From positions 62,001 to 126,000 of the forward strand of contig JAIEMQ010000028.1 of assembly GCA_019752015.1 (NCBI GenBank): a stretch of DNA of 64,000 nucleotides, written 5' to 3'. The notes under the pieces are model-generated. The model searched no databases. It had not been told where the DNA came from and saw only the letters and a program-made list of their open reading frames with translations. The translations under genes and the position numbers were made by a program. The stretch's first letter is position 1. Every line of letters starts with the position of its first letter. Source of the DNA: Cyanobacteriota bacterium (lineage in GTDB: Bacteria > Acidobacteriota > Vicinamibacteria > Vicinamibacterales > UBA2999). Below are positions 15,799-29,717 of the stretch, one piece after another.

Positions 15799-17097
15799 AT
15801 GAGAATCGTGGCTCTGTCCGTCGTTCTCGCTTCGGTGTCGCTCTCCGCGGGGAATTCGGCGCCGCCGGCGCCGCTCGCGTGCGAAGCGCTGTCGCAGACC
15901 ACGCTGCAAGGTGGTCAGGTGCTGTCGTCCGAATCCATAGCAGCCGGAGCGTTCGTGCCTCCCGGCGCGACCAACCCGAACGCGGGCGCGGCGTACAAGA
16001 CGGTGCCGGCGTTTTGTCGCGTGACGTTGCGACTGACGCCCTCCACTGATTCAGACATTCGCGTCGAGGTCTGGCTGCCGCAGGCTGGATGGAATCGCAA
16101 GCTGCAAGTGTCCGGCAACGGTGGATTGGGCGGAGCGATTCCGTATGCGGCGATGGCCGCGTCAGTGAGAGCGGGATACGCAGCCGCGGGGACTGATACC
16201 GGCCACGTCGGCGGCAATGCCGACTTCGTGGCCGGACATCCCGAAAAGCTCGTGGACTTCGGGCATCGAGCGATCCATGAAACGACCGTGACCGCAAAGG
16301 CGATCACCGCCGCGCATTACGACGCGCGTCCGGCCCGCGCCTACTTCAACTCCTGCTCCACGGGTGGACGGCAGGCGCTGATCGAAGCGCAGCTTTATCC
16401 GGAGGACTTCGACGGTATCGTCGCCGGCGATCCGTCGTGGGATCAGATGCGGCTCTACGCGGCGCGCGTCTGGTTGAACACGTATGTCAACCGCACGCCC
16501 GCGGCAGTGATTCCTCCAGCCAAGTATTCGATGATTCACGAGGCGGTCCTCGCGAAGTGCGATGCAATCGATCGCGTGAAGGACGGCGTCATCGAGGATC
16601 CGTCGAAGTGCGCATTCGACTTCGCGGCCTTGACCTGCAGTGGAGAGGACCGCGCCGATTGCCTGACGAAGGATCAGGTCGAGACCGCGAGCGCCATGAC
16701 GCGCCCGATCCGGGATCCGAAGAGCGGCGCCGTGCTGCACCCGGGCCGCTACTATCCGGGCTCCGAGCTCGGATGGGGCGGCGTGGCCGGCCCTGCGCCG
16801 TCGGGCGAATCACATGAAGGCATGCGGAAGATCGTGTTCACGCCCGACTGGGAGGTCGGGCTGTTCATGGTGCCCGGAATGGGCCACTGCCAGGGCGGGC
16901 CAGGAACCGATGTCTTCGACAAAGTCGCCGCGCTCGATCGGTGGGTCGAAAGCGGAACCAGACCGCAATCGATCGAAGCCTCGCACCTGACCAACGGCGT
17001 CGTCGATCGCACGCGTCCGCTGTGCGCGTATCCAACGACGGCGCGCTATATCGGCACCGGCAGTACGGATGACGCGAAGAACTTTCGCTGTCAGTAA
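15799..17097 (+). CDS. Tannase/feruloyl-esterase family protein lacking the catalytic-Asp segment
   Basis: A 432-aa secreted protein (signal peptide to about residue 20). The nucleophile elbow NSCSTGGRQA places Ser at 187 and its partner Cys at 186; GMGHCQGG places His at 363 and Cys at 364, the CS...HC pair linked by a disulfide in this family. Family members are usually 520-560 aa. Between TPDWE and VGLFMVPG (about 16850) the expected stretch with the GGKLI-HGxxD catalytic Asp is absent, an in-frame loss of about 90 residues. The protein is probably inactive as an esterase. Confidence 0.85.
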   Translation: MRIVALSVVLASVSLSAGNSAPPAPLACEALSQTTLQGGQVLSSESIAAGAFVPPGATNPNAGAAYKTVPAFCRVTLRLTPSTDSDIRVEVWLPQAGWNRKLQVSGNGGLGGAIPYAAMAASVRAGYAAAGTDTGHVGGNADFVAGHPEKLVDFGHRAIHETTVTAKAITAAHYDARPARAYFNSCSTGGRQALIEAQLYPEDFDGIVAGDPSWDQMRLYAARVWLNTYVNRTPAAVIPPAKYSMIHEAVLAKCDAIDRVKDGVIEDPSKCAFDFAALTCSGEDRADCLTKDQVETASAMTRPIRDPKSGAVLHPGRYYPGSELGWGGVAGPAPSGESHEGMRKIVFTPDWEVGLFMVPGMGHCQGGPGTDVFDKVAALDRWVESGTRPQSIEASHLTNGVVDRTRPLCAYPTTARYIGTGSTDDAKNFRCQ

Positions 17098-17812: not shown

Positions 17813-20800
17813 CTACGGCGCCACCGTGATGGTGGCGCTCGTCGCCAGCTTCCCGTAACCGTTGTTCGCGAAGAAGCGGATGTTGTAAGTCCCCGGCGTC
17901 GCCGGCGCCGTGAACTGCAGCGAGGCATTGGTCAGTCCTGATGACGGGACGGTGTTCTGGCCGTTCAGGTATTTCCAGCTCAGCTGACCACCCATGTCCT
18001 GACCCGAAACCGCATAGAGGCCGACCCAATCCGCGGGATTGCCCGGGCCGTTGCTCACGGTAAAGCTGATGACGCCGCCGGGTTGGACGTTCGGCGTCGA
18101 GACGTTGACCGCCGGACCGGCCGGTCCATCGTCATTGATGATCGTGCCCACACCCTGCGCATCGGCGATCGCGGCGTTGATCGCATTCGACAGGTTGACG
18201 GTGAAGGTCTCGTTCGGCTCGACGGTCATGTCGCCGTTGATCGTCACGCTGATCGTCTGCGTCGCCACCGACGGCGCGAACGTCAACGTGCCGCTGGCGG
18301 CCACGTTGTCGTTGCCGCCGGTCGTCGCGGTGCCGTTGGCAGTGGAGTAGTCGACCGTCACGGTTTGCGACGCGTTGACCGGCGAGAGCGTGACGGTAAA
18401 CGTCGCGACCGTCGTCCCGCTGTTGCCTTCGGTGACGCTGACGTCGTTGATCGTCAGCGCCGGTCCGTTGGCGACCGAAATCGCGCTGCTGCGAGCGATC
18501 CGGTTATACGAGTCGCTGGTGAACAGGCGGATGTCGTAGGAACCAGCCGTCATCGGCGCCGTGAACTGCAGCGTCGTGTTCGCAATGCCGCTGCCTGGCG
18601 CGCTCTTCGTCCCGTTCAAGTACACCCAGTAGACGTGACCGGTGTCGGGCGAGCTGAGCGGGACGAGCGAGACCCAGTCGGTCGGGTTCGCCGGACCATT
18701 CGCGATCGTAAAGCTGATCGAGCCACCGGGCGTCACATTCGGCGTGTTGACCGTGATCGATGGACCGGTCGGCCCATCGTCGTTGGCAATCGTGCCGACG
18801 CCCTGCGTATCGGAGATCGTCGCGTTGGCCGCGCCCGAGAGGTTCACGGTGAAGGTCTCGTTGGCTTCGTTCGTGGTGTCGCCATTCACCGTCACGCTGA
18901 TCGTTTGCGTGGCGACCGACGGCGCGAAGGTCAGCGACCCGCTCGCCGCAACGTAGTCGCTGCCGGCCGTCGCGGATCCATTCGCGGTGCTGTAATTCAC
19001 GGTCACGGTTTGCGACGCATTCACCGGCGATAGGGTGACGGTAAACGTCGCGACCGTCGTACCGGCGTTGCCTTCGGTGACGCTGACATCGTTGATGCTG
19101 AGCGCCGGGCCGGAGGCCACCGTGACCGGGCTGCTGCGCGCGATGCGGTTGGCCGAATCGTTGGTGAACAGCCGGATGTCGTAGCTGCCCGGTGTCTGCG
19201 GCGCGGTGAACTGCAGCGTCGCATTGGCGAGGCCGCTGGCGGGCGCCGACTTGGTGCCGTTGAGATACAGCCAGTCGATCCTGCCGCTGTCGTCCGCGGC
19301 CGCCGGCACGAGCGCGACCCAGTCGCGCGGATTCGCCGGACCGTTGCTGACCGAGAAGCTGATCGCGCCGCCAGGCGCGACCGACGGCGTGTTGATCGTG
19401 ATCGCCGGACCGGCCGGCGCGTCGTCGTTGATGATGGTGCCCACGCCCTGCGCGTCGGCGATCGTGGCGTTGGCCGCGCCTGAAAGGTTGACCGTGAACG
19501 TCTCGTTCACCTCGCTTGCCGTGTCGCCATTCACCGTCACGCTGATCGTCTGCGTCGCAGTGGACGGCGAGAAGGTGAGCGATCCGGTGGCCGCGACGTA
19601 ATCGCTGCCCGCCGTGGCCGTGCCATTTGCCGTCGCGTAGTTGACCGTCACCGTCTGCGATGTATTCACCGGCGACATCGTCACCGTGAACGTCGCCACC
19701 GTCGTGCCGGCATTGCCTTCGTTGATGCTGACGTCATTGATGCTCAGCGACGGACCCGTGGTGACGCTGAAGGGGCTGCTCCGCGCGATGCGGTTGGCCG
19801 AATCGTTGGTGAACAACCGGATGTCATAGCTGCCGGTCGTCTGCGGAGCGGTGAACTGCAGCGTCGCGTTGGTGATGCCGCTGGACGGCGCCGACTTGCT
19901 GCCGTTGAGATACAGCCAGTCGATCCTGCCGCTGTCGTCCGCGGCCGCCGGAACGAGCGCTACCCAGTCGCGTGCGTTGCCCGGACCATTGGAAACAGTG
20001 AAGCTGATCGCGCCACCGGGTGCGACGGTCGGCGTATTGATCGTGACCCCGGGACCGGCCGGCGCATCGTCATTCGTGATCGTGCCGACGCCTTGTCCAT
20101 CGCCGATGGTTGCGTTGGTCGCGCCTGACAGGTTGACGGTGAACGTCTCATTCCCTTCGTTCGACGTATCGCCGTTCACGGTGACGCTGATCGTTTGCGT
20201 CGCCACCGATGGCGCGAAGCTCAGCGTGCCGCTGGCCGCGACATAGTCGCTTCCGGCCGTGGCGGTACCGTTTGCCGTCGCGTAGTTCACGTTTACTGAC
20301 TGTGTGGTGTTGACCGGCGACAGCGTTACGGTGAAGGTCGCGACCGTCGTGCCGCTATTACCCTCGTTGAGCGTGATGTCGTTGATCGACAGCGCCGGGC
20401 CGTTGCCGACGACCACGCCGCCGCTGCGCGCGATGCGGTTATACGTATCGTTCGTGAAGAGCCGGACGTCGTAGGTGCCGGTCGTCATCGGCGCGGTGAA
20501 CTGCAGCGTCGTATTCGCAATGCCGGTGCCGGGCGCCGTCTTGGTGCCGTTCAAATAGAGCCAGTCGATCTTGCCGGTGTCGGGAGCGGATTGCGGCACG
20601 AGCCCGACCCAGTCGGCGGGATTCGCGGGTCCATTGGCGACGTTGAACCGGATGATGCCGCCCGGAGCGACATTCGGAGTCGTGATCGTGACCGCCGGTC
20701 CGGACGGCCCATCGTCATTGGTGATCGTGCCGGTTGCCTGCGCGTCGCCGATCGACGCATTGACGGCGCCGGACAACGTGACCAGGAACGTCTCATCGGG

Positions 20801-22696
20801 TTCCGCCGTGGTGTCGCCCTGGACGGTGACCGAGATCGTTCGCGTCGAGGCCCCCGTGGGGAAGGTCAGCGTGCCTGATGCCGCCGTGTAATCGCTGCCG
20901 GCCGTCGCGGAACCGTTTGACGTCGCGTAGTTCACCGTCACTGCCTGCGACGGATTGGTGGGCGACAACGTCACGGTGAACGTCGCCGTTGCCGTGCCGC
21001 TGCTGCCTTCCGTCACGCTGACGTCGCCGATCGTCAACGTCGGCGATCCACCGGTCGTTACCGTTTCGCTGGTGGCGAGTTTGTAGCGCGGGTTATTCGA
21101 GAAGAGCCGGACGTTGCATTGAACGCCCGGTGTGGCCGGCGCCGTGAACGTGACCGTGGCCGCGCTCATGCCCGACGCAGGTGCGGTCTGGGTATTGTTC
21201 AGGTACTTCCAATCCGTATAGGCCGTGTCGGCCAGCGTTGCCGGGCAGTACAACCCGAGCCAATCGTCGGTGTGGCCCGGTCCGTTTTCGAGCGTCGCCG
21301 TAATGGTGTTGCCGCCGATCGTCGCGTGGAGGCTCGGCACGCATCGCTCGAGCGCATTGGCCACGTTCAACCGTCCGCCGGTGACGGTTTTTCCAGCCAG
21401 GCTCGCGACCGGATCGACGCTCGCCAGCAGCGTTGATTTCAGCGACGCCGTATTCGACGGGCACGCGGACAGCACGAGCGCCGCCGCGCCGGACACGAAC
21501 GGCGCCGACATCGACGTGCCACTGAGGTAACCGTAATTGCTGTCGGGCAACGTCGATAGCGTCGAGTCACCCGGCGCCGCGAGATGAACAGACGCCGCAC
21601 CGTAGTTGGAGTACGACGCGAGCTCGCCGGCATTGGTCACGGCCGCGACGCTGATCACGTTGGGGCTCGCCGAGGATGCCGGATAGTGCGGCGTCACGTC
21701 GTTGTTGGTGCCGTTCGATCCGGCCGCGGCCACGAACAGCATGTCGGCGTTATTGGCCGCGTTGATTTCGTCGGTGAGGGCCTGCGAGAAGTCGCCGCCG
21801 CCCCAGCTCGCATTGAGCACGCGGACGTTGGCGTCGGCGCCGAGCGCGGCCTTGGTGCGAATCGCGAACTCGATCGCTTCGATCGCATCGCTGGTCGTGC
21901 CGGTGCCGGTCGCATCGAGAACCTTGAGGGCCATCAGCGTCGTCGTCCAGTTCACGCCGGTGACGCCGGTGTTGTTATTGCCGACCGCGCCGATGATGCC
22001 GGCGACGTGCGTGCCGTGGCCGCTGTCGTCGGCCGGGATGCACGTGTTGGTCATGGCGTTGAATCCGTGCGTGCCCGCCGCGCAGGTCAGCGTTGCGCCG
22101 CTGATCGTGACCGAGAATTGCCGCGGCGCGGCGAAGACGTTCGCCGCGAGATCGGGATGATTGAAATCGATGCCGGTATCGAGGATGGCGACGACAGTCG
22201 CGCGGGAGCCGGTGGTCACGTCCCATGCGGCAACGGCGCCGATATCGGCGCCGGGTACGCCGGGATGTCCATCGACGTCCTGCCCGGTGTTGTTCAAGCC
22301 CCACAAGCTGCCGAAGGCCGGATCGTTGGGAACCGCGTGAGCGCGAATCACATAATTCGGCTCGACAAACTCGACATCTGGATTGGCGCGCAGTGTCGCG
22401 ATCAACTGGCGAGTGCTGAGCTGGCGTGAACGCAAGTGGCGTGCGCCTCTGCGTCCGACTGCTCGTGACGTCTCGGTTCGGGCCTGGAACTCGGCGCGAT
22501 CGCGCCCAATTCGTCCAGCTTCAGAGCGATAACGGACGATCACTTCGCCGTCCACGACTTCTCGGCCGTCAATCACCTCAATTCGGCGGCCACCCCCAGC
22601 GGGCCGGCCTTGTCCTACGATCGCGTCGGCACCAAGCGTGATCAACGCGAGGGCGAGCGTCAGGGCGACACGATTGATCCGTCGCGACTTCAACAT
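17813..22696 (-). CDS. Large secreted subtilisin-like protease with Calx-beta array
   Basis: A 1627-aa protein from ATG 22696; upstream in-frame sequence is not signal-like. It has a signal peptide, a propeptide (about 35-120, GEVIVRYR and NPDVEFVEPNY) and an S8 domain with Asp173 (DTGIDFNHPDL), His227 (GHGTHVAG) and Ser395 (SGTSMSAP). A Cys-containing sandwich module follows, then five Calx-beta domains (DVSVTEGNSGT...GTITNDDGP) alternating with modules that share NGPxNPxDWVxL, YLNG, TLQFTAP and YDIRLFTND. The Calx-beta domains should bind calcium. Probably an extracellular or surface protease. A divergent paralogue starts at 22889. Confidence 0.92.
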   Translation of the reverse strand: MLKSRRINRVALTLALALITLGADAIVGQGRPAGGGRRIEVIDGREVVDGEVIVRYRSEAGRIGRDRAEFQARTETSRAVGRRGARHLRSRQLSTRQLIATLRANPDVEFVEPNYVIRAHAVPNDPAFGSLWGLNNTGQDVDGHPGVPGADIGAVAAWDVTTGSRATVVAILDTGIDFNHPDLAANVFAAPRQFSVTISGATLTCAAGTHGFNAMTNTCIPADDSGHGTHVAGIIGAVGNNNTGVTGVNWTTTLMALKVLDATGTGTTSDAIEAIEFAIRTKAALGADANVRVLNASWGGGDFSQALTDEINAANNADMLFVAAAGSNGTNNDVTPHYPASSASPNVISVAAVTNAGELASYSNYGAASVHLAAPGDSTLSTLPDSNYGYLSGTSMSAPFVSGAAALVLSACPSNTASLKSTLLASVDPVASLAGKTVTGGRLNVANALERCVPSLHATIGGNTITATLENGPGHTDDWLGLYCPATLADTAYTDWKYLNNTQTAPASGMSAATVTFTAPATPGVQCNVRLFSNNPRYKLATSETVTTGGSPTLTIGDVSVTEGSSGTATATFTVTLSPTNPSQAVTVNYATSNGSATAGSDYTAASGTLTFPTGASTRTISVTVQGDTTAEPDETFLVTLSGAVNASIGDAQATGTITNDDGPSGPAVTITTPNVAPGGIIRFNVANGPANPADWVGLVPQSAPDTGKIDWLYLNGTKTAPGTGIANTTLQFTAPMTTGTYDVRLFTNDTYNRIARSGGVVVGNGPALSINDITLNEGNSGTTVATFTVTLSPVNTTQSVNVNYATANGTATAGSDYVAASGTLSFAPSVATQTISVTVNGDTSNEGNETFTVNLSGATNATIGDGQGVGTITNDDAPAGPGVTINTPTVAPGGAISFTVSNGPGNARDWVALVPAAADDSGRIDWLYLNGSKSAPSSGITNATLQFTAPQTTGSYDIRLFTNDSANRIARSSPFSVTTGPSLSINDVSINEGNAGTTVATFTVTMSPVNTSQTVTVNYATANGTATAGSDYVAATGSLTFSPSTATQTISVTVNGDTASEVNETFTVNLSGAANATIADAQGVGTIINDDAPAGPAITINTPSVAPGGAISFSVSNGPANPRDWVALVPAAADDSGRIDWLYLNGTKSAPASGLANATLQFTAPQTPGSYDIRLFTNDSANRIARSSPVTVASGPALSINDVSVTEGNAGTTVATFTVTLSPVNASQTVTVNYSTANGSATAGSDYVAASGSLTFAPSVATQTISVTVNGDTTNEANETFTVNLSGAANATISDTQGVGTIANDDGPTGPSITVNTPNVTPGGSISFTIANGPANPTDWVSLVPLSSPDTGHVYWVYLNGTKSAPGSGIANTTLQFTAPMTAGSYDIRLFTSDSYNRIARSSAISVANGPALTINDVSVTEGNSGTTVATFTVTLSPVNASQTVTVDYSTANGTATTGGNDNVAASGTLTFAPSVATQTISVTINGDMTVEPNETFTVNLSNAINAAIADAQGVGTIINDDGPAGPAVNVSTPNVQPGGVISFTVSNGPGNPADWVGLYAVSGQDMGGQLSWKYLNGQNTVPSSGLTNASLQFTAPATPGTYNIRFFANNGYGKLATSATITVAP

Positions 22697-22792
22697 GTTC
22701 AACCACTCCACGCTGCCGCCACACTGCAAAGAAGTCGCCAAGAATTGGCAGCAACTTGTCTTCCTCGCAGAGGTTTTTTGTCGCGCGTCGAT

Positions 22793-22825
22793 CGGATTTG
22801 ATTTGCATTTTGTACGGATTTGATT
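22793..22825. promoter_or_regulatory. Direct repeat CGGATTTGATT x2, 22 bp apart, in a divergent promoter region
   Basis: CGGATTTGATT occurs at 22793-22803 and 22815-22825. The 22-bp period is about two helical turns, so a bound dimer or two regulator protomers would lie on one DNA face. The repeats are in the 192-bp gap between the two divergent subtilase genes. Confidence 0.4.
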
Positions 22826-22888
22826 CGCGTCGTTGTGTGCACGCTTGACTGACAGTGCCAAGCAGTCGACACTAGAGATTCCCAATCA

Positions 22889-25800
22889 ATGAACTTCGCG
22901 CGCCGGCCGCTGGCGGTAGCACTCACCGTCGTGTTGGCCCTCCTGACGCTAGTCTCGGAACATCTCTCGACGCAGGGTCAGAGAGGACGCCGCGGCCTGT
23001 CCACGGTGATCGTCGACGGCCGCGAAGCGGTCGAAGGCGAAGTCATCGTTCGCTATCGCGCCGCCGCGGGTGTGGCCGGCCGTCAGCGCGCCGAGTTCGA
23101 AGTCGACAGCGACGAAGTGGAAGCTATCGGCCGCCGCGGAGCGCGTCGCATGCGATCGCGGCGTCTCGGCACGCGCGCCATGTTGCAGGCACTGCGCGCC
23201 AACCCCGACGTTGAGTACGTCGAGCCCAACTACATCATCCGGCTCAATGCGACGCCGAACGATCCGTCATTCCCGAGCCTTTGGGGGTTGTTCAACTCCG
23301 GGCAGACTATTGTCGGCACTGCGGGTGTGATCGGCGCGGACATTGACGCACCGAGCGCGTGGAATTTCACCACCGGCTCGCGCGCCAACGTTGTCGGCGT
23401 GATCGACACCGGCATCTTGTACAACCATCCCGACCTGGCCGCGAACATCTGGACAGCGCCGCGCCCGTTCTCTGTGGTGATTAGCGGCCTTGTCATCAAC
23501 TGCGCCGCCGGCACGCACGGCTTCAACGCGATCAACAACACCTGTAATCCGATGGACGATCACTCGCACGGCACGCACGTCGCCGGCACCATCGGCGCTG
23601 TCGGCAACAACGGCATTGGCGTCGCCGGCGTGAACTGGGTGGCCAGCATGATGGGCCTCAAGTTCCTCAGCGCCAGCGGATCGGGCACGACGTCGGATGC
23701 AATCAAAGCCATTGAATTCGCGATCCAGGCCAAGGCTGCGCTGGGCGTGGACGCGAACGTGAGGGTCCTGTCGAATAGTTGGGGCGGCGGCGGGTATTCG
23801 CTGGCGCTTGGCAATCAGATCGAAGCGGCGAACGGCGCGGACATGTTGTTCGTCGCCGCCGCCGGCAACGACGGCCTCAACAACGACATCTATCCGCACT
23901 ATCCGTCTTCTTACGCGAACAACAACGTCGTGAGCGTGCTGGCGTCGACCAATCGCGATCAGCGCGCGTCGTTTTCGAACTACGGCGTGACCTCGGTGGA
24001 TATTGCCGCGCCGGGATCACAGATCCTCTCGACCGTCCTCAACAACAGCTACGCCTTCTATAGCGGCACGTCGATGGCTACGCCGCACGTCTCCGGTGCG
24101 GCGGCGCTGGTGCTCTCGGCGTGTCCGATGAACACGACGGACTTGAAGAACCTGTTGCTGTCGTCCGTCGACTTGCCGGCATCGCTCTCAGGATGGACGG
24201 CGACCGGCGGCCGTCTTGCTGTCAATAACGCCGTCCAGACCTGCATGGTCGGTATGCCGTCCCTCACGGCTGCCGTCCAGGGAAAGACAGTCACGGCCAC
24301 GCTCAACAACGGCCCTGGCCGCGCCGACGACTTGCTCGGTTTGTTCTGTCCGTCGACGAATCCGGACGCCACGATTGCCGACAGCAAATACCTGAACGGA
24401 TCGACAACGCCGCCCGCGAGCGGATTGTCGGCGGCCACCGTCACGTTGACCGCACCTGCGGGTGGACAGACGTGCCAGGTCCGGATGTTTTCGACGATCA
24501 ACGGCAACCGCGTGAAGCTGGCCACGAGTAATAACGTCCTGATCCCGGTCACGCCGCCGTCGCTGACTGTCAACACACCTTCGGTGAGCGCGGGCGGAAC
24601 GATTAGCGTGTCTGTCGCCGATGGCCCAGGTGGCATCGGCGATTGGGTTGCCTTGTATCAACAGGTGGCCTCTGATACGGCGTATCTGCAGTGGAATTAC
24701 CTGACGGGCACTCATAGCAAGCCTGGGTTGGGCAGGACCGCGGCGACCTTGTCGTTCACGGCGCCGACGACGGCAGGCAGCTACGAGCTTCGTTTGTTTG
24801 CTGACGATGGTTTCCAGCGATTAGCGACGAGCAGCCCCATCGTCGTTGCCGGTCAACCGAGCCTCACGGTCAACGACATCACCGTGACGGAAGGTAGCAG
24901 CGGCTCGACCAACGCGATCTTCACCGTGACGCTGACGCCGGCCGACGCGACGCAGACTGTTACTGTGAATTACGCCACGGCGAACGGCACGGCCACGGCA
25001 GGCAGCGACTACACGCCGGTGAACGGCATGTTGACGTTCCCGCCGTCGGTGACGACGCAAACGATTTCGGTGCCCGTTATCGGTGACGCCGTCGTTGAGC
25101 CGAACGAAACGTTCTATGTGAACTTGTCGAGTGCGGGCAATGCGACGATCGGCGATGCGCAAGGCCTCGCATCGATTCTCACCGATGATTATCCGGCCGG
25201 CGCGACGATCACGGTTCAATCGTCATCGGTCTTGCCCGGTGGAACGATCAACTTTCAGATCGCGAACGGTCCCGGCAACCGCGCCGACTGGATTGGATTC
25301 TTTCCGGCTGCTGCCGCGGACAATGGCTATCAGCAGTGGTTCTATCTGAACGGCCAGAAGACAGCGCCGGTTGTTGGCCTGCCAAACGCGTCGGTGCAAC
25401 TCACCGCGCCGCAAGCCGCGGGCACCTACAACATCCGCCTGTTCGCCAATGATGGTTTCCAGAAGCTCGCCACGAGCCCGGCCATCACCATTGCCGCTCA
25501 GCCGACGCTGACGATCAACGATGTCAGCGTGGCGGAAGGCAACAGCGGCACCGCCACCGCCACGTTTACGGTCACGCTCGCACCGGCTAATACATCGCAG
25601 ACGGTGACCGTTGACTTCGCGACCGCGAACGGCACCGCGACCATCGCCGACAACGATTACGTCGCGACCAATGGCACGCTGACCTTCGCGCCGAATGTCG
25701 ACACGCAGACGATCAACGTGATGGTCACCGGCGACGCGAACAACGAGTCGAATGAAACGTTCGCCGTGAACCTGTCGAACGCGGTCAATGCCGCCGTTGG

Positions 25801-26800
25801 TGATACGCAGGGCACGGGCACGATCACCAACGACGATGGCCCGCCGGGTCCGTCAATCACCATCAATACGCCGACGGTCGCCCCTGGCGGCGTCATCAGC
25901 TTCACCGTTGCCAACGGTCCGGGCAATCGCGCGGATTGGGTCGGCCTTGCTCCGGCAGCCGCGGCGGACATGGGCAAGATCGACTGGATCTATCTGAACG
26001 GCACCAGGTCGGCGCCGGCGAGCGGCATCGCCAACGCGACGCTGCAGTTTATCGCGCCGGCAACGCCCGGATCGTACGACGTGCGGCTGTTCAGCAACGA
26101 CACCTACACCCGTATTGCGCGCAGCGTGGCGATTCCAGTAGCCAACGGACCAACGTTGACCATCAACGACGTCACGATCGTCGAAGGCAATAGTGGAGTT
26201 GCAAACGCGACGTTCACCGTGACGGTATCTCCGGTCAATGCGACGCAGAGCGTGACGGTCGACTACGCGACCGCGAACGGCACGGCGACGACCGCAAACA
26301 ACGACTACGCTGCAACGTCGGGCACGTTGACGTTTGCACCGTCGGTGGTAACACAAACGATCACGGTGCCGGTGATCGGCGACGCGGACGTGGAAGGCAA
26401 CGAGACGTTCGTCGTCAACCTTTCGAACGCCGTCAACGCGGCGATCGCCGATGCGCAGGGCATTGGCACGATTACCAGTGACGATCTGCCGGCCGGTCCT
26501 TCGATCACGATCGAGTCTGGTCTGACAATTCCTCGCGGCGGCCTGATCACGCTGAAGGTGTGGAACGGGCCCGGCAACGTCACTGACTGGGTAGGGCTCT
26601 ACGCGTTCGCCGCTGCCGACGTCGGTTATCAGCTGCAGTGGGTGTATCTGAGCGGCACCAGGACCCCAGGAGCTGGTCTCTCGAACGCGACGCTGCAGTT
26701 CGTGGCGCCGATGACGGCGGGCACTTACAACATCCGTCTATTCGCGAGCGACGGCTTTACGAAGCTCGCGACGAGCCCGGCGATTACCGTCACGCCCTAA
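22889..26800 (+). CDS. Large secreted subtilisin-like protease, paralogue of the divergent gene
   Basis: A 1303-aa protein with signal peptide, propeptide (GEVIVRYR, NPDVEYVEPNYI) and S8 domain with Asp173 (DTGILYNHPDL), His227 (SHGTHVAG) and Ser395 (SGTSMATP), exactly the same numbers as in its neighbour. After a Cys-containing sandwich module and one further NGPxxxxDWVGL-type module come three Calx-beta domains (e.g. DITVTEGSSGS, DVSVAEGNSGT, DVTIVEGNSGV) alternating with three more such modules. It ends in PAITVTP. It arose by inverted duplication with the 1627-aa gene and has fewer repeat units. Extracellular proteolysis is likely. Confidence 0.92.
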   Translation: MNFARRPLAVALTVVLALLTLVSEHLSTQGQRGRRGLSTVIVDGREAVEGEVIVRYRAAAGVAGRQRAEFEVDSDEVEAIGRRGARRMRSRRLGTRAMLQALRANPDVEYVEPNYIIRLNATPNDPSFPSLWGLFNSGQTIVGTAGVIGADIDAPSAWNFTTGSRANVVGVIDTGILYNHPDLAANIWTAPRPFSVVISGLVINCAAGTHGFNAINNTCNPMDDHSHGTHVAGTIGAVGNNGIGVAGVNWVASMMGLKFLSASGSGTTSDAIKAIEFAIQAKAALGVDANVRVLSNSWGGGGYSLALGNQIEAANGADMLFVAAAGNDGLNNDIYPHYPSSYANNNVVSVLASTNRDQRASFSNYGVTSVDIAAPGSQILSTVLNNSYAFYSGTSMATPHVSGAAALVLSACPMNTTDLKNLLLSSVDLPASLSGWTATGGRLAVNNAVQTCMVGMPSLTAAVQGKTVTATLNNGPGRADDLLGLFCPSTNPDATIADSKYLNGSTTPPASGLSAATVTLTAPAGGQTCQVRMFSTINGNRVKLATSNNVLIPVTPPSLTVNTPSVSAGGTISVSVADGPGGIGDWVALYQQVASDTAYLQWNYLTGTHSKPGLGRTAATLSFTAPTTAGSYELRLFADDGFQRLATSSPIVVAGQPSLTVNDITVTEGSSGSTNAIFTVTLTPADATQTVTVNYATANGTATAGSDYTPVNGMLTFPPSVTTQTISVPVIGDAVVEPNETFYVNLSSAGNATIGDAQGLASILTDDYPAGATITVQSSSVLPGGTINFQIANGPGNRADWIGFFPAAAADNGYQQWFYLNGQKTAPVVGLPNASVQLTAPQAAGTYNIRLFANDGFQKLATSPAITIAAQPTLTINDVSVAEGNSGTATATFTVTLAPANTSQTVTVDFATANGTATIADNDYVATNGTLTFAPNVDTQTINVMVTGDANNESNETFAVNLSNAVNAAVGDTQGTGTITNDDGPPGPSITINTPTVAPGGVISFTVANGPGNRADWVGLAPAAAADMGKIDWIYLNGTRSAPASGIANATLQFIAPATPGSYDVRLFSNDTYTRIARSVAIPVANGPTLTINDVTIVEGNSGVANATFTVTVSPVNATQSVTVDYATANGTATTANNDYAATSGTLTFAPSVVTQTITVPVIGDADVEGNETFVVNLSNAVNAAIADAQGIGTITSDDLPAGPSITIESGLTIPRGGLITLKVWNGPGNVTDWVGLYAFAAADVGYQLQWVYLSGTRTPGAGLSNATLQFVAPMTAGTYNIRLFASDGFTKLATSPAITVTP

Positions 26801-27463
26801 CTATCGCTGCGCGCCCGCATTGCGGTGACGGCGCAAACGTGTTCGCGCGGCGAGCGCCAATCCAACTCCGACCATCGTCATCGTCGCTGGTTCAGGAACA
26901 GGAGTCGGCTGCTCAACATCCGAAACCGCCTGAAGATTTGCCCTGAATCGCTGCGGCCAGGACTCTCCAGGACGATGGAACAGCGGGAACTGCGCGCTGA
27001 TGAACGCGGGCTGGCCATCGGCCAAATCGCCGCCCCACCACATACCGGGCAAGTAGCTGCCGTCGGACCCGAGCGGGATCCATCCATCGGGCAACGCAGG
27101 ACCGCCAGATCCCCACGAGGGCACCACGATTTCGACGTTGTCCAGTGATGGCGCGCACGTACCCGGGCCAAAGCCCATCGCGTCTTCCCAGACATATCCG
27201 GTGTTCGTATACGAGCGGCCAAGCACTCGCATCGTGGCGCTGGCCATTCCCTGCAAACAAATCGCTGGATTGAGAGCCGGCGCGTCGGGCGCAAGCGACA
27301 CGATCACGTCAACCGGCGTGCCGATTGGCACGACCGAATCGAGCGTCAGGCCGGCGGGCACGCTCGTGTGGCCCGTAACAAAGCCGGTCCAATGCCAGAT
27401 CGTTCCGGCCATAGCGGTGTGGGGGACAGCAAGAACAACAACGAGCAAGAGGATGTGCCTCAT
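26801..27463 (-). CDS. PEP-CTERM sorting-domain protein
   Basis: A 220-aa protein. ATG 27463 is preferred because GAGG precedes it at good spacing; another ATG lies at 27475. It has a signal peptide (HILLLVVVLAVPHTAMA), a beta-rich body, and the C-terminal tripartite tail VPEPATMTMVGVGLALAART followed by Arg residues, the exosortase recognition motif. The protein is therefore cleaved and anchored or released by an exosortase not encoded here. Its stop abuts the convergent subtilase. Body function unknown. Confidence 0.85.
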   Translation of the reverse strand: MRHILLLVVVLAVPHTAMAGTIWHWTGFVTGHTSVPAGLTLDSVVPIGTPVDVIVSLAPDAPALNPAICLQGMASATMRVLGRSYTNTGYVWEDAMGFGPGTCAPSLDNVEIVVPSWGSGGPALPDGWIPLGSDGSYLPGMWWGGDLADGQPAFISAQFPLFHRPGESWPQRFRANLQAVSDVEQPTPVPEPATMTMVGVGLALAARTRLRRHRNAGAQR

Positions 27464-27555
27464 CGAATGCCTCATCGTCTTGCTGCAAAACACTGGCCTT
27501 GAACCGCGCTGATTCGTGGTATTCGTAGCGTCTTGATGGGACTGCGAATACAGCG

Positions 27556-29022
27556 GTGACGGCGCGCGTCACGGCGATTGCGATTGTGTCCGCGCTCGTC
27601 AGCCTAACGTCCGCCGGAGCGCAGACTTTGCGCTGGGGCGGTGATGCCGAAGGCGGCGCGCCGTTCGTCGAGGCAGATCCGCGCGATCCGTCGAAGCTCG
27701 TTGGCTTCGACGTCGAGATCGCGGAACTGATCGCTAGAAAACTTGGCCGGACCCCGCAGTTCCTGCAGGTGCAGTTCACCTCGCTCGATCAATCCGCGAA
27801 GCGCGGGGATTTCGACATCGGCCTGAGCGGCATCGAGGACATCCCCGCGCGCCGTCAGTCGCTCGCTGCGAGCATGCCCTACTACGAATTCCGGGAAGTG
27901 CTCACGGTGCGGCAGGGCGATCGCGACCGTTACCGTTCGCTTGCCGATCTGAAAGGCCGCCGCGTCGCCACGCTGGGCGGCACCATGGCCTACGGCCTGC
28001 TGCTCGAGGCCGAGCGCACCCACGGCCTCACGGCGGTCTCCTACGACGATGACGTGCATCCGTATTCGGACCTGGTGATCGGACGAGTCGATGCCGTGGT
28101 GCTCGACAACGTGCTCGCCGATCGTGCCATGCGGCGCAACACCGGCCTCGTCACGCATCCTGAGGCGCTCGCCATTGGTCATTACATCGTCATCACGGCT
28201 CCAGAAAACACGGCGCTGCGCGATCAGGTCGATCAGATCCTGCGCGACGCCATGAACGACGGCACGCTCGAGCAGATCTTCAGGAAATGGAATGTGTGGA
28301 ACGACGATCAGCAGCCGCTCTACCAGCGGCTGTCGACGCGGACTGAAGACGCGCCGCCGGCAGCGCTCCCGTCAACGGGCGAACTGGTGTCGCGCTACGT
28401 CCCGTCGTTACTGCGTGCCGCTGTGATTACACTGATTCTGTCCTGCGCGGCAATGGCGCTCGCTGTTGCTCTCGGCGTCCTGATCGCGACCGGCCGTGTT
28501 TACGGCGATCCGGTTTCGCGATTGCTGCTCACCGTCTATGTCGAAGTGATGCGCGGCACGCCGGTGTTGCTGCAATTGTTCGTGATCTATTACGGCCTTG
28601 CGTCGGTGATCAGGCTGCCGGCGTTCGTGGCCGCGCTGCTCGGGCTCGGCCTCAACTACGCCGCCTACGAAAGCGAGATCTATCGCAGCGCGCTTGAAGC
28701 AGTGCCGCGCGGGCAGCTCGATGCGGCGCGCATTCTCGGGTTCACGCGGATGCAGACGCTGCGCCTGATCCGCGCGCCGCAGGCGTTCCGGCTGGCGCTG
28801 GCGCCGATGACCAACGACTTCGTTGCGCTGCTCAAGGATTCGTCGCTCGTCTCGATGCTGACGGTCGTCGAGCTCACCAAGCAGACCCAGATCGTCGCGA
28901 CCAACATCGGCAGCTGGGTGATCCCCGGTCTGTTATGCGCGGTGTTGTATCTCGCGATGTCGTTGCCGCTTGGTTATCTGGCCCGCCGTCTCGAAGAGCG
29001 ATGGAGGATGCCGACCGTATGA
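27556..29022 (+). CDS. Polar amino-acid ABC transporter, fused binding protein and permease
   Basis: A 488-aa fusion from GTG 27556. Residues about 20-255 form a family 3 solute-binding domain (GFDVEIAELIARKLGR, GDFDIGLSGIEDIPARRQS) that ends in FRKWNVWNDD. Residues 275-480 form a HisM/GlnP-type permease with about five TM helices and the EAA loop SALEAVPRGQLDAARILGF. The signal peptide exports the binding domain, which stays tethered to the permease. ATGA overlap with the ATPase gene indicates coupled translation. Substrate is probably a polar amino acid. Confidence 0.92.
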   Translation: MTARVTAIAIVSALVSLTSAGAQTLRWGGDAEGGAPFVEADPRDPSKLVGFDVEIAELIARKLGRTPQFLQVQFTSLDQSAKRGDFDIGLSGIEDIPARRQSLAASMPYYEFREVLTVRQGDRDRYRSLADLKGRRVATLGGTMAYGLLLEAERTHGLTAVSYDDDVHPYSDLVIGRVDAVVLDNVLADRAMRRNTGLVTHPEALAIGHYIVITAPENTALRDQVDQILRDAMNDGTLEQIFRKWNVWNDDQQPLYQRLSTRTEDAPPAALPSTGELVSRYVPSLLRAAVITLILSCAAMALAVALGVLIATGRVYGDPVSRLLLTVYVEVMRGTPVLLQLFVIYYGLASVIRLPAFVAALLGLGLNYAAYESEIYRSALEAVPRGQLDAARILGFTRMQTLRLIRAPQAFRLALAPMTNDFVALLKDSSLVSMLTVVELTKQTQIVATNIGSWVIPGLLCAVLYLAMSLPLGYLARRLEERWRMPTV

Positions 29023-29717
29023 GCGCGCTCAACGCGACAGGCGTGCGCTTGAAGCGCGGCTCGCGCGAGATCCTGCGCGGCGTCGATCTCCATGCCGATG
29101 CGGGAGAGCTGGTGGCGTTGATGGGGCTGTCAGGATCGGGCAAGACCACCATGCTGCGCGTGATCGCCGGCCTCGAGCCGCGCGACGGCGGAGAAGTGTC
29201 CGCCGCGAAAGTCGGGATGGTATTCCAGTTCCATTTCCTGTTCGAACACCTCTGCGCGATCGACAACGTCACGCTCGCGCCGACCCAGGTGTTGGGCGTA
29301 TCGATGCCCGACGCCAGGGAGCGCGCGCAGCAGCTGCTCGATCAGCTCGGTGTCGGCCACCGCGCGCATGCGCTGCCGCGTGAACTGTCGGGCGGCGAAG
29401 CGCAACGCGTCGCAATCGCGCGCGCGCTCGCCGTCGATCCGCCGTTGCTGCTGCTCGACGAGCCGACCGCGTCGCTCGATCCCGCGCGCCGCAACGATCT
29501 TGGCGAGGCGCTCGTGAAGCTCGCCGAATCGGGCCGCGCGCTGGTGATGACCTCGCACGACGACGACTTCGTCCGGGAGTTCGCGACGCGCGTCGTCGTC
29601 CTCGCGAATGGGGAAGTCGTGGAGCAGGGCGATCCGGAAACGGTCTTGACCGCACCCCAACACTCCGCGACGAGGGAACTGCTGCAGCTCGAGCGGGCCC
29701 GTCGAGGTGTACAATAG
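29019..29717 (+). CDS. Amino-acid ABC transporter ATP-binding protein
   Basis: A 232-aa ATPase. Walker A GLSGSGKTT, Q-loop VFQFHFLFEHL, signature LSGGEAQRVAIARALA, Walker B LLLLDEPTASLD and H-loop MTSHDDD are all intact. It is closest in pattern to GlnQ/HisP-type subunits. The ATG overlaps the stop of the fused permease. tRNA-Lys begins 7 bp downstream. Confidence 0.94.
   Translation: MSALNATGVRLKRGSREILRGVDLHADAGELVALMGLSGSGKTTMLRVIAGLEPRDGGEVSAAKVGMVFQFHFLFEHLCAIDNVTLAPTQVLGVSMPDARERAQQLLDQLGVGHRAHALPRELSGGEAQRVAIARALAVDPPLLLLDEPTASLDPARRNDLGEALVKLAESGRALVMTSHDDDFVREFATRVVVLANGEVVEQGDPETVLTAPQHSATRELLQLERARRGVQ

What the first reader, a model, noticed from the sequence alone, without database searches (positions are those of the whole stretch)
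17813..26800. Divergent twin subtilases with catalytic residues at identical positions and alternating repeat modules
Both proteins place Asp173, His227 and Ser395 at exactly the same residue numbers, so the protease halves are an undisrupted inverted duplication. Behind them the repeat arrays differ: five Calx-beta domains with six partner modules in one, three with five in the other. The array has expanded or contracted since duplication.
Basis: partly seen in the sequence, partly recalled or inferred. Interest (0 to 1): 0.7.

Follow-up and report, generated by a model that had tools for sequence, protein, structure and literature searches.

The report
Twin secreted proteases with repeat tails
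A bacterium of the phylum Acidobacteriota carries two old, back-to-back copies of a protein-digesting enzyme (predicted to be secreted) whose repeat tails have since grown to different lengths, and one copy has changed a residue that normally helps catalysis: a real and informative, but mostly ordinary, gene duplication.

Summary
Confirmed. Gene A (minus, 17813-22696, 1627 aa) and gene B (plus, 22889-26800, 1303 aa) are head-to-head S8 subtilases. Residues 1-451 align without a gap, 62% identical, with Asp173, His227 and Ser395 equally numbered. A's tail has six partner modules and five Calx-beta; B's five and three, starting with two partner modules in a row. A and B are sisters at moderate support (84/77) inside a 95/97 clade; none of 14 related sequences shows this tail, though two run off their contigs. 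Module trees indicate a tail older than the split and an expanded middle in A.

Two additions. (1) The equality stops at the oxyanion hole: subtilisin's Asn155 position (327) is Asn in B, Ser in A, the only Ser in 69 aligned rows; A alone departs at 11 of 96 family-invariant positions, B alone at 2. (2) The partner module is a SKICH-like beta sandwich (pLDDT 96.6), found in the same class behind other S8 and one M4 protease. Closest solved catalytic domain: collagenolytic deseasin MCP-01.

The parts
17813..22696 (-). gene A: S8 subtilase, 1627 aa, with 6 SKICH-like (SK) and 5 Calx-beta (Cx) modules
   Evidence: ORF and ATG; Pfam S8 174.5 bits, Calx-beta 299.2 bits
21344..22696 (-). A: leader (signal peptide by eye), prodomain and catalytic domain, residues 1-451; D173, H227, S395; S327 at the oxyanion position
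22889..26800 (+). gene B: S8 subtilase, 1303 aa, with 5 SK and 3 Cx modules
22889..24241 (+). B: leader (signal peptide by eye), prodomain and catalytic domain, residues 1-451; D173, H227, S395; N327 oxyanion
22697..22888 (.). 192-bp divergent intergenic region; no sigma-70-like site found and no inverted symmetry beyond shuffles
21041..21343 (-). A_SK1 (sister of B_SK1)
20711..21040 (-). A_Cx1
20396..20710 (-). A_SK2
20066..20395 (-). A_Cx2
19751..20065 (-). A_SK3 (closest to A_SK4, 86% DNA identity)
19421..19750 (-). A_Cx3
19106..19420 (-). A_SK4
18776..19105 (-). A_Cx4
18461..18775 (-). A_SK5
18128..18460 (-). A_Cx5
17816..18127 (-). A_SK6, terminal; the module modelled by AlphaFold
24242..24556 (+). 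B_SK1
24557..24859 (+). B_SK2
24860..25189 (+). B_Cx1
25190..25504 (+). B_SK3
25505..25837 (+). B_Cx2
25838..26152 (+). B_SK4, groups with A_SK2-5
26153..26485 (+). B_Cx3
26486..26797 (+). B_SK5, terminal

Best explanation
An ancestral subtilase with a deseasin-like catalytic domain acquired a tail of SKICH-like and Calx-beta modules, was then duplicated head to head in the lineage of this Acidobacteriota genome, and the copies diverged. B kept the canonical active site; A changed the oxyanion Asn to Ser and other conserved positions near the nucleophile, and its tail grew by tandem duplication of a 645-bp Cx-SK unit in the middle of the array. Shown here: homology, gene order, module make-up, unequal substitution, and that tail modules of this kind sit behind several protease types. 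Inferred: both proteins are exported, the prodomain is cut off, calcium stiffens the Calx-beta modules, and the tail holds the enzyme on an insoluble protein or cell surface while the catalytic domain cuts, as the PKD domain does for MCP-01; A is likely a slower or differently specific enzyme with a longer tail, and B the main protease.
For: Gap-free 62% catalytic alignment; A+B sisters at 84/77 in a 95/97 clade. SK trees join A_SK1 to B_SK1 and A_SK2-5 to B_SK4; A_SK3/A_SK4 are the closest pair (98/97; dN 0.079, dS 0.419). None of 14 related sequences has SK or Calx-beta in the same frame behind the catalytic domain; Pfam gives CARDB, SprB-like, cadherin-like/Big_9 or FG-GAP plus DUF11 tails, or nothing over cut-off. 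Best solved relative is deseasin MCP-01, E 5.6e-103 for B and 1.2e-83 for A, whose PKD domain binds and swells collagen according to passages of PMC11294657. N327S: TCG against AAC; the column reads N 65, G 3, S 1, gap 2 in 71 rows that include A and B. 11 against 2 lone departures at 96 invariant positions, two-sided binomial p 0.022. All 8 Calx-beta modules keep the acids of EG, D(Y), DxxxExxE and DD. SK modules occur in six other S8 frames and in L184, and alternate with Calx-beta behind an M4 protease in L195.
Against: A+B sisterhood is below the star level, and was open in the 23-row tree. Relative-rate counts lean to A as the faster copy but chi-square exceeds 3.84 with only 4 of 14 outgroups and is 0.01 and 0.21 with G294 and G324. 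B_SK2 groups with modules of G269 (95/91), so a single origin of all window modules is not shown. The Calx-beta tree is unresolved. The Cx-SK-Cx model is mediocre (pLDDT 75.5, pTM 0.48), so a rod is not shown. Of the 14 related sequences G056b and G349 run off their contigs, so their full tails are unseen. No binding, calcium or catalytic data exist.
Confidence: 0.67

Rival explanations
1. Both copies are fully active proteases that differ only in substrate range or dose; Ser327 still supports catalysis and A's changes are specificity changes.
For: The triad is intact in A, both frames are open, and dN is below dS in every module pair computed, although many dS values are near saturation.
Against: Asn at this position is kept in 65 of 69 rows with a residue there and is invariant in the related sequences compared; A also changes H400 and A397 next to the nucleophile.
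Confidence: 0.4
2. The twins are not one duplication: two separate paralogues (one perhaps from another species) came to lie side by side and exchanged tails by recombination.
For: A-B identity (64.8% over the compared columns) is no higher than between other sequences (up to 70.8%; B with G056a 62.5%); A+B support is only 84/77; related proteins carry many different tails.
Against: Gap-free alignment, sister position in the best tree, and first modules, joined directly to the catalytic domains, that are each other's sisters (A_SK1 with B_SK1 100/98).
Confidence: 0.17
3. The tails are only inert spacers or stabilisers and the difference in length is neutral.
For: Myroicolsin's beta-jelly-roll tail does not bind collagen (passages of PMC11294657); in the 77-row tree many modules group by protein, as expected if arrays grow within genes.
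Against: Conserved D-W motif in SK and conserved acids in Calx-beta, and use behind S8 and M4 proteases.
Confidence: 0.3
4. Assembly artefact: repeats misjoined in the contig.
For: The genome is in 82 contigs and A has inner repeats of up to 86% DNA identity, with one 60-bp window at 98%.
Against: Both frames stay open through all modules, every pair of A's SK modules differs at 14% or more of bases, and the contig is 177,629 bp long.
Confidence: 0.03

Closest known systems
Deseasin MCP-01 (S08.130, Pseudoalteromonas sp. SM9913; PDB 3vv3)
   Same: Best solved match of both catalytic domains by a wide margin; multidomain extracellular subtilase with beta-sandwich tail
   Different: MCP-01's tail is P-proprotein plus PKD; here Calx-beta plus SKICH-like, with no P_proprotein or PKD match over Pfam's cut-off; PKD is a sub-threshold match of A_SK6 (18.1 against 23.5 bits)
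SKICH domain (PF17751; NDP52, TAX1BP1), with fold relatives HECW2 N-terminal domain and plant purple acid phosphatase N-domain
   Same: Fold: the ten Foldseek matches at E<=0.001 are nine SKICH chains and HECW2; VIA Z 12.2 to purple acid phosphatase PPD1, 10.8 to NDP52; shared D-W-(V/I)-G in the non-significant HMMER alignment to NDP52
   Different: Gene A scores 19.4 bits against a cut-off of 23.4, gene B is not listed; modules stand in tandem or alternating arrays of bacterial proteins
Calx-beta domain (PF03160; Na/Ca exchanger)
   Same: Five and three stretches, 299.2 and 185.1 bits against 27; A_Cx5 matches solved Na/Ca exchanger chains, best E 1.5e-13
   Different: Interleaved with SKICH-like modules behind a protease
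M4 protease of L195 (G442) and S8 protease of L184 (G454), same class
   Same: Calx-beta and SKICH-like modules together behind a protease
   Different: Unrelated (M4) or distant (S8) catalytic domains; SK modules of G442 are on a long branch away from the window's

Membership tests
S8 subtilase (PF00082) | score over Pfam cut-off and D-H-S triad | tested here: met
   174.5 and 181.7 bits against 21.8; D173, H227, S395 in both
Canonical active subtilisin-type enzyme (gene B) | oxyanion Asn at subtilisin position 155 | tested here: met
   N327
Canonical active subtilisin-type enzyme (gene A) | oxyanion Asn at subtilisin position 155 | tested here: not met
   S327; A stays in S8 by sequence and triad, its activity is in doubt
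Deseasin group | closest catalytic domain is MCP-01 | tested here: met
   E 5.6e-103 (B) and 1.2e-83 (A), next best 2.6e-36 and 1.7e-38; among solved structures only
Deseasin group | C-terminal P_proprotein and PKD domains as in MCP-01 | tested here: not met
   no such match over cut-off; hence called deseasin-like, not a deseasin
Deseasin group | collagen degradation | not testable with these tools
   needs enzyme assays
SKICH (PF17751) | Pfam gathering score | tested here: not met
   19.4 against 23.4 bits for A, not listed for B; in 297 phylum genomes 0 over cut-off, and the window's own genome no match at E<=0.01. Whole-protein scores of repeat proteins elsewhere do exceed it: L144 37.7, L146 24.2, L196 27.1
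SKICH (PF17751) | SKICH fold | tested here: met
   Foldseek and VIA matches of the predicted model
Calx-beta (PF03160) | Pfam gathering score for each protein | tested here: met
   299.2 and 185.1 bits against 27; 5 and 3 stretches
Calx-beta (PF03160) | calcium-binding acids (which residues are ligands is recalled) | tested here: inconclusive
   E of EG, D of D(Y), DxxxExxE and DD present in 8 of 8 modules; the Tyr after D is Asn in A_Cx5; binding not measured

The most novel reading that the evidence does not exclude
The pair is a protease and its own half-disabled twin: A, with an altered oxyanion hole and the longer tail, has become mainly a substrate-gripping or regulating partner (or a very slow, highly selective protease) for active B. 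Its tail module belongs to an unnamed bacterial family of SKICH-like domains that also sits next to endonuclease/exonuclease/phosphatase enzymes, the same neighbour type as in animal SKICH inositol phosphatases (recalled), which would give SKICH a bacterial root.
Probability: 0.15. Interest if true: 0.62.

Novelty: new variant of a known kind. Interest (0 to 1): 0.38.

Why it matters
It is a clean natural case of how multidomain proteases evolve: same catalytic core, one shared tail, then unequal growth of the tail and unequal change of the active site. It also shows that a module family that Pfam does not name in these proteins, recurrent in one class of Acidobacteriota, has the fold of a domain known from autophagy receptors; naming it would annotate many large orphan proteins.

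Tried and rejected
(1) Leftover inverted symmetry in the intergenic DNA: none beyond shuffles (130 of 500 shuffles reach the score of the region against its own reverse complement; 432 of 500 for the two upstream halves). (2) All A modules as one clade apart from B: rejected for SK (p-AU 0.0007), undecided for Calx-beta (p-AU 0.463). (3) Terminal modules A_SK6 and B_SK5 as sisters: suggested by an extra residue at the same column (placed apart), neither shown nor rejected by the tree (p-AU 0.194); A_Cx5 with B_Cx3 likewise (p-AU 0.102). (4) A solved relative of the SK module by sequence: nothing convincing; best E 0.014, a circularly permuted glucanase; with a broader profile best E 0.19, an antibody chain, and NDP52 at E 0.95. 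For A_SK6 alone PKD (E 0.0028) ranks above SKICH (E 0.012), both below cut-off. (5) Rod geometry from a Cx-SK-Cx model: too weak. (6) Literature, listings only: on SKICH in bacteria, (53 papers, 20 listed, those listed are on host autophagy and related topics; 0 papers; 3 papers, unrelated); on Calx-beta with subtilisin and Acidobacteria, (39 papers with two of three terms, 12 listed, none of the 12 holding 'calx-beta'). Only open PMC papers are searched, so this is weak evidence of absence. PMC2863174 (the PKD paper) is not held. Passages only were seen of PMC11294657, PMC11593635 (which names Asn155 as the oxyanion residue) and PMC9549277; listings. The effect of Asn155 mutations on kcat is recalled.

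Rows dropped: the tree used S8 hits over 250 bits and left out L132 (in-frame stop); searches used 16 rows (A, B and 14 sequences from 13 genomes); one search kept 71 of 115 rows after removing duplicates, contained rows and rows under 150 residues; one search kept modules of at least 76 residues and left out L143 and L144 (same contigs as L135 and L179), L139, L145, L146, L189, L193 and L194.
Full report
OBSERVATION. The window is contig C8:62001-126000 of a 5.9-Mb, 82-contig genome that I place in the Acidobacteriota by kin: the same-genus genome G002 has a contig C46 of 50,013 bp, the length of JAUSDY010000014.1 (Acidobacteriota bin), with the same 2163-residue protein, and the same-family genome G034 has a contig C130 of 59,188 bp, the length of QHWQ01000001.1 (Acidobacteria gp6 bin), with the same 824-residue protein. 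The class name Vicinamibacteria is my own reading of gp6. Gene A and gene B lie head to head with 192 bp between their ATG codons. Residues 1-451 align without a gap, 280 identical: 15 of 40 in the leader, 49 of 80 in the next part, 216 of 331 in the rest. Triad numbers are equal.

TAILS. A: SK1-Cx1-SK2-Cx2-SK3-Cx3-SK4-Cx4-SK5-Cx5-SK6. B: SK1-SK2-Cx1-SK3-Cx2-SK4-Cx3-SK5; Cx is Calx-beta, SK my label for the partner module. The Calx-beta starts in A are exactly 215 residues apart. A_SK3 and A_SK4 are 86% identical in protein and in DNA, with one 60-bp window at 98%.

TREES. Catalytic: 16 rows, A+B 84/77, next to G026, G027 and G424 in a 95/97 clade; 23 rows, the same five together but A and B unresolved. 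SK: A_SK1+B_SK1 100/98, A_SK2-5+B_SK4 97/95, A_SK3+A_SK4 98/97; the DNA tree has the same three groups. In a 77-row SK tree the two cross-gene groups stay (98/91, 99/97); B_SK2 joins two modules of G269 (95/91), so I cannot claim that every window module has one origin; holding all 11 together is not rejected (p-AU 0.267). The simplest history is a shared first module, a B_SK4-like unit multiplied to four in A, and gain or loss of B_SK2.

DISTRIBUTION. At E<=1e-90 the catalytic profile hits 18 of 162 genomes of the order, at most 10 candidates scored per genome; G000 and G056 have two hits, those of G056 on different contigs. In 297 phylum genomes 63 have a hit at E<=1e-60, several of them two or three; two in G186 lie about 13 kb apart on one strand. 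In the stretches fetched around relatives only L052 (G054) held a second S8 frame, a same-strand pair of distant type; several contigs are too short to exclude a partner. Within what was searched, the head-to-head pair is known from this genome alone.

TAIL SWAPPING. None of the 14 related sequences (13 genomes) has SK or Calx-beta in the same frame; the frames of G056b (L040) and G349 (L129) run off their contigs. Pfam finds CARDB in three (G343, G042, G044), SprB in three (G026, G027, G424), cadherin-like/Big_9 in one (G349), FG-GAP plus DUF11 in two (G294, G324); G056b has an fn3 and G357 a DUF5980 match, both below cut-off; G056a, G388 and G354 show nothing beyond the protease part at E 1e-4. 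L129 has a separate frame with three Calx-beta modules near its protease.

OXYANION. HMMER aligns subtilisin Asn155 (my count from the printed chain positions of 1a2q_A) and MCP-01's Asn with residue 327 of B; in A the residue aligned to MCP-01's Asn is Ser. Codons: AAC in B, TCG in A, three differences, so one read error cannot explain it. In 71 rows, A and B included, the column reads N 65, G 3, gap 2, S 1; the G rows score under 80 bits and may be misaligned. Of 96 columns invariant in the 14 related sequences (at least 13 with a residue), A departs at 12 and B at 3; alone 11 and 2, p 0.022. A's changes include 397 and 400, next to the nucleophile. By established enzymology (recalled) loss of this Asn slows subtilisins strongly; whether Ser helps is unknown.

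PARTNER MODULE. In the whole window proteins only Calx-beta, S8 and the prodomain pass their Pfam cut-offs. Scanned alone, 25 modules (11 of them the window's) match fn3_PAP in 7 and SKICH in 6 at E<=1. AlphaFold gives one confident eight-stranded sandwich (pLDDT 96.6, pTM 0.88). The ten Foldseek hits at E<=0.001 are nine SKICH chains of TAX1BP1 or NDP52 and HECW2's N-domain; VIA puts plant purple acid phosphatase first (Z 12.2, 98 aligned, 2.4 A) and NDP52 second (Z 10.8, 94 aligned, 2.5 A). Common descent is likely but not proved. With the window's own 11 modules as profile, 6 of 297 phylum genomes match at E<=1e-8 (at most 16 candidates scored each); with a broader profile, 21 of 193 genomes of the class at E<=1e-6 (at most 25 scored each). 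The module occurs in S8 frames L137, L182, L183, L187, L188, L190 and L184, behind an M4 thermolysin-type protease in alternation with Calx-beta in L195, with an M23 peptidase in L136, and with endonuclease/exonuclease/phosphatase domains in L141, L142 and L146. A named scan of genome contigs with a five-row alignment gave 4 loci: two Acidobacteriota, one Verrucomicrobiales, one Candidatus Poseidoniales.

FUNCTION. The prodomain match (PF22148; 22.2 and 28.4 bits against 21), a hydrophobic leader judged by eye, and no anchor in the last 25 residues by eye point to a secreted, self-processing protease. By analogy with MCP-01 the tail would hold insoluble protein. Flanking genes (tannase-like 15799-17097, PEP-CTERM protein 26801-27493, ABC transporter genes 27556-29717) give no firm link. 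Verdict: real, correctly read, a known kind of event with an unusual tail and an unnoticed active-site change.

Noticed in passing
L141:4076-5572, L142:2974-4638, L146:5794-8676: SKICH-like modules in one frame with endonuclease/exonuclease/phosphatase domains in two genomes of the window's phylum and a Verrucomicrobiales bin, recalling animal SKICH inositol phosphatases (recalled).
   Followed up: partly
L195:3565-8121 (G442): M4 thermolysin-type protease with a strictly alternating SKICH-like and Calx-beta tail, the same arrangement on an unrelated protease.
   Followed up: partly
G000:C62:22282-23445 and G000:C25:20731-21149 (L138, L139): Further SKICH-like modules in the window's own genome; in C25 the module pieces lie in two short frames (268 and 157 aa) and look broken.
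   Followed up: no
G000:C43:23443-27506 and G000:C28:71931-75530: Two more pairs of neighbouring S8 matches in the same genome, each pair on one strand; adjacent subtilase duplicates may be common here.
   Followed up: no
L133:5709-12557 and L134:3878-10822: Relatives of 2283 and 2315 aa with 18 and 17 FG-GAP_3 stretches and four DUF11 stretches each behind the same kind of catalytic domain.
   Followed up: no
L132 (G301:C8): An orthologue with one in-frame TGA, either a pseudogene or a sequence error.
   Followed up: no
L145:674-2740: A contig binned as Candidatus Poseidoniales encodes two peptidoglycan-binding stretches plus one SKICH-like module; the binning was not checked.
   Followed up: no
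window 26801-27493: A frame with a PEP-CTERM motif, convergent with gene B; the two frames abut without a gap.
   Followed up: no
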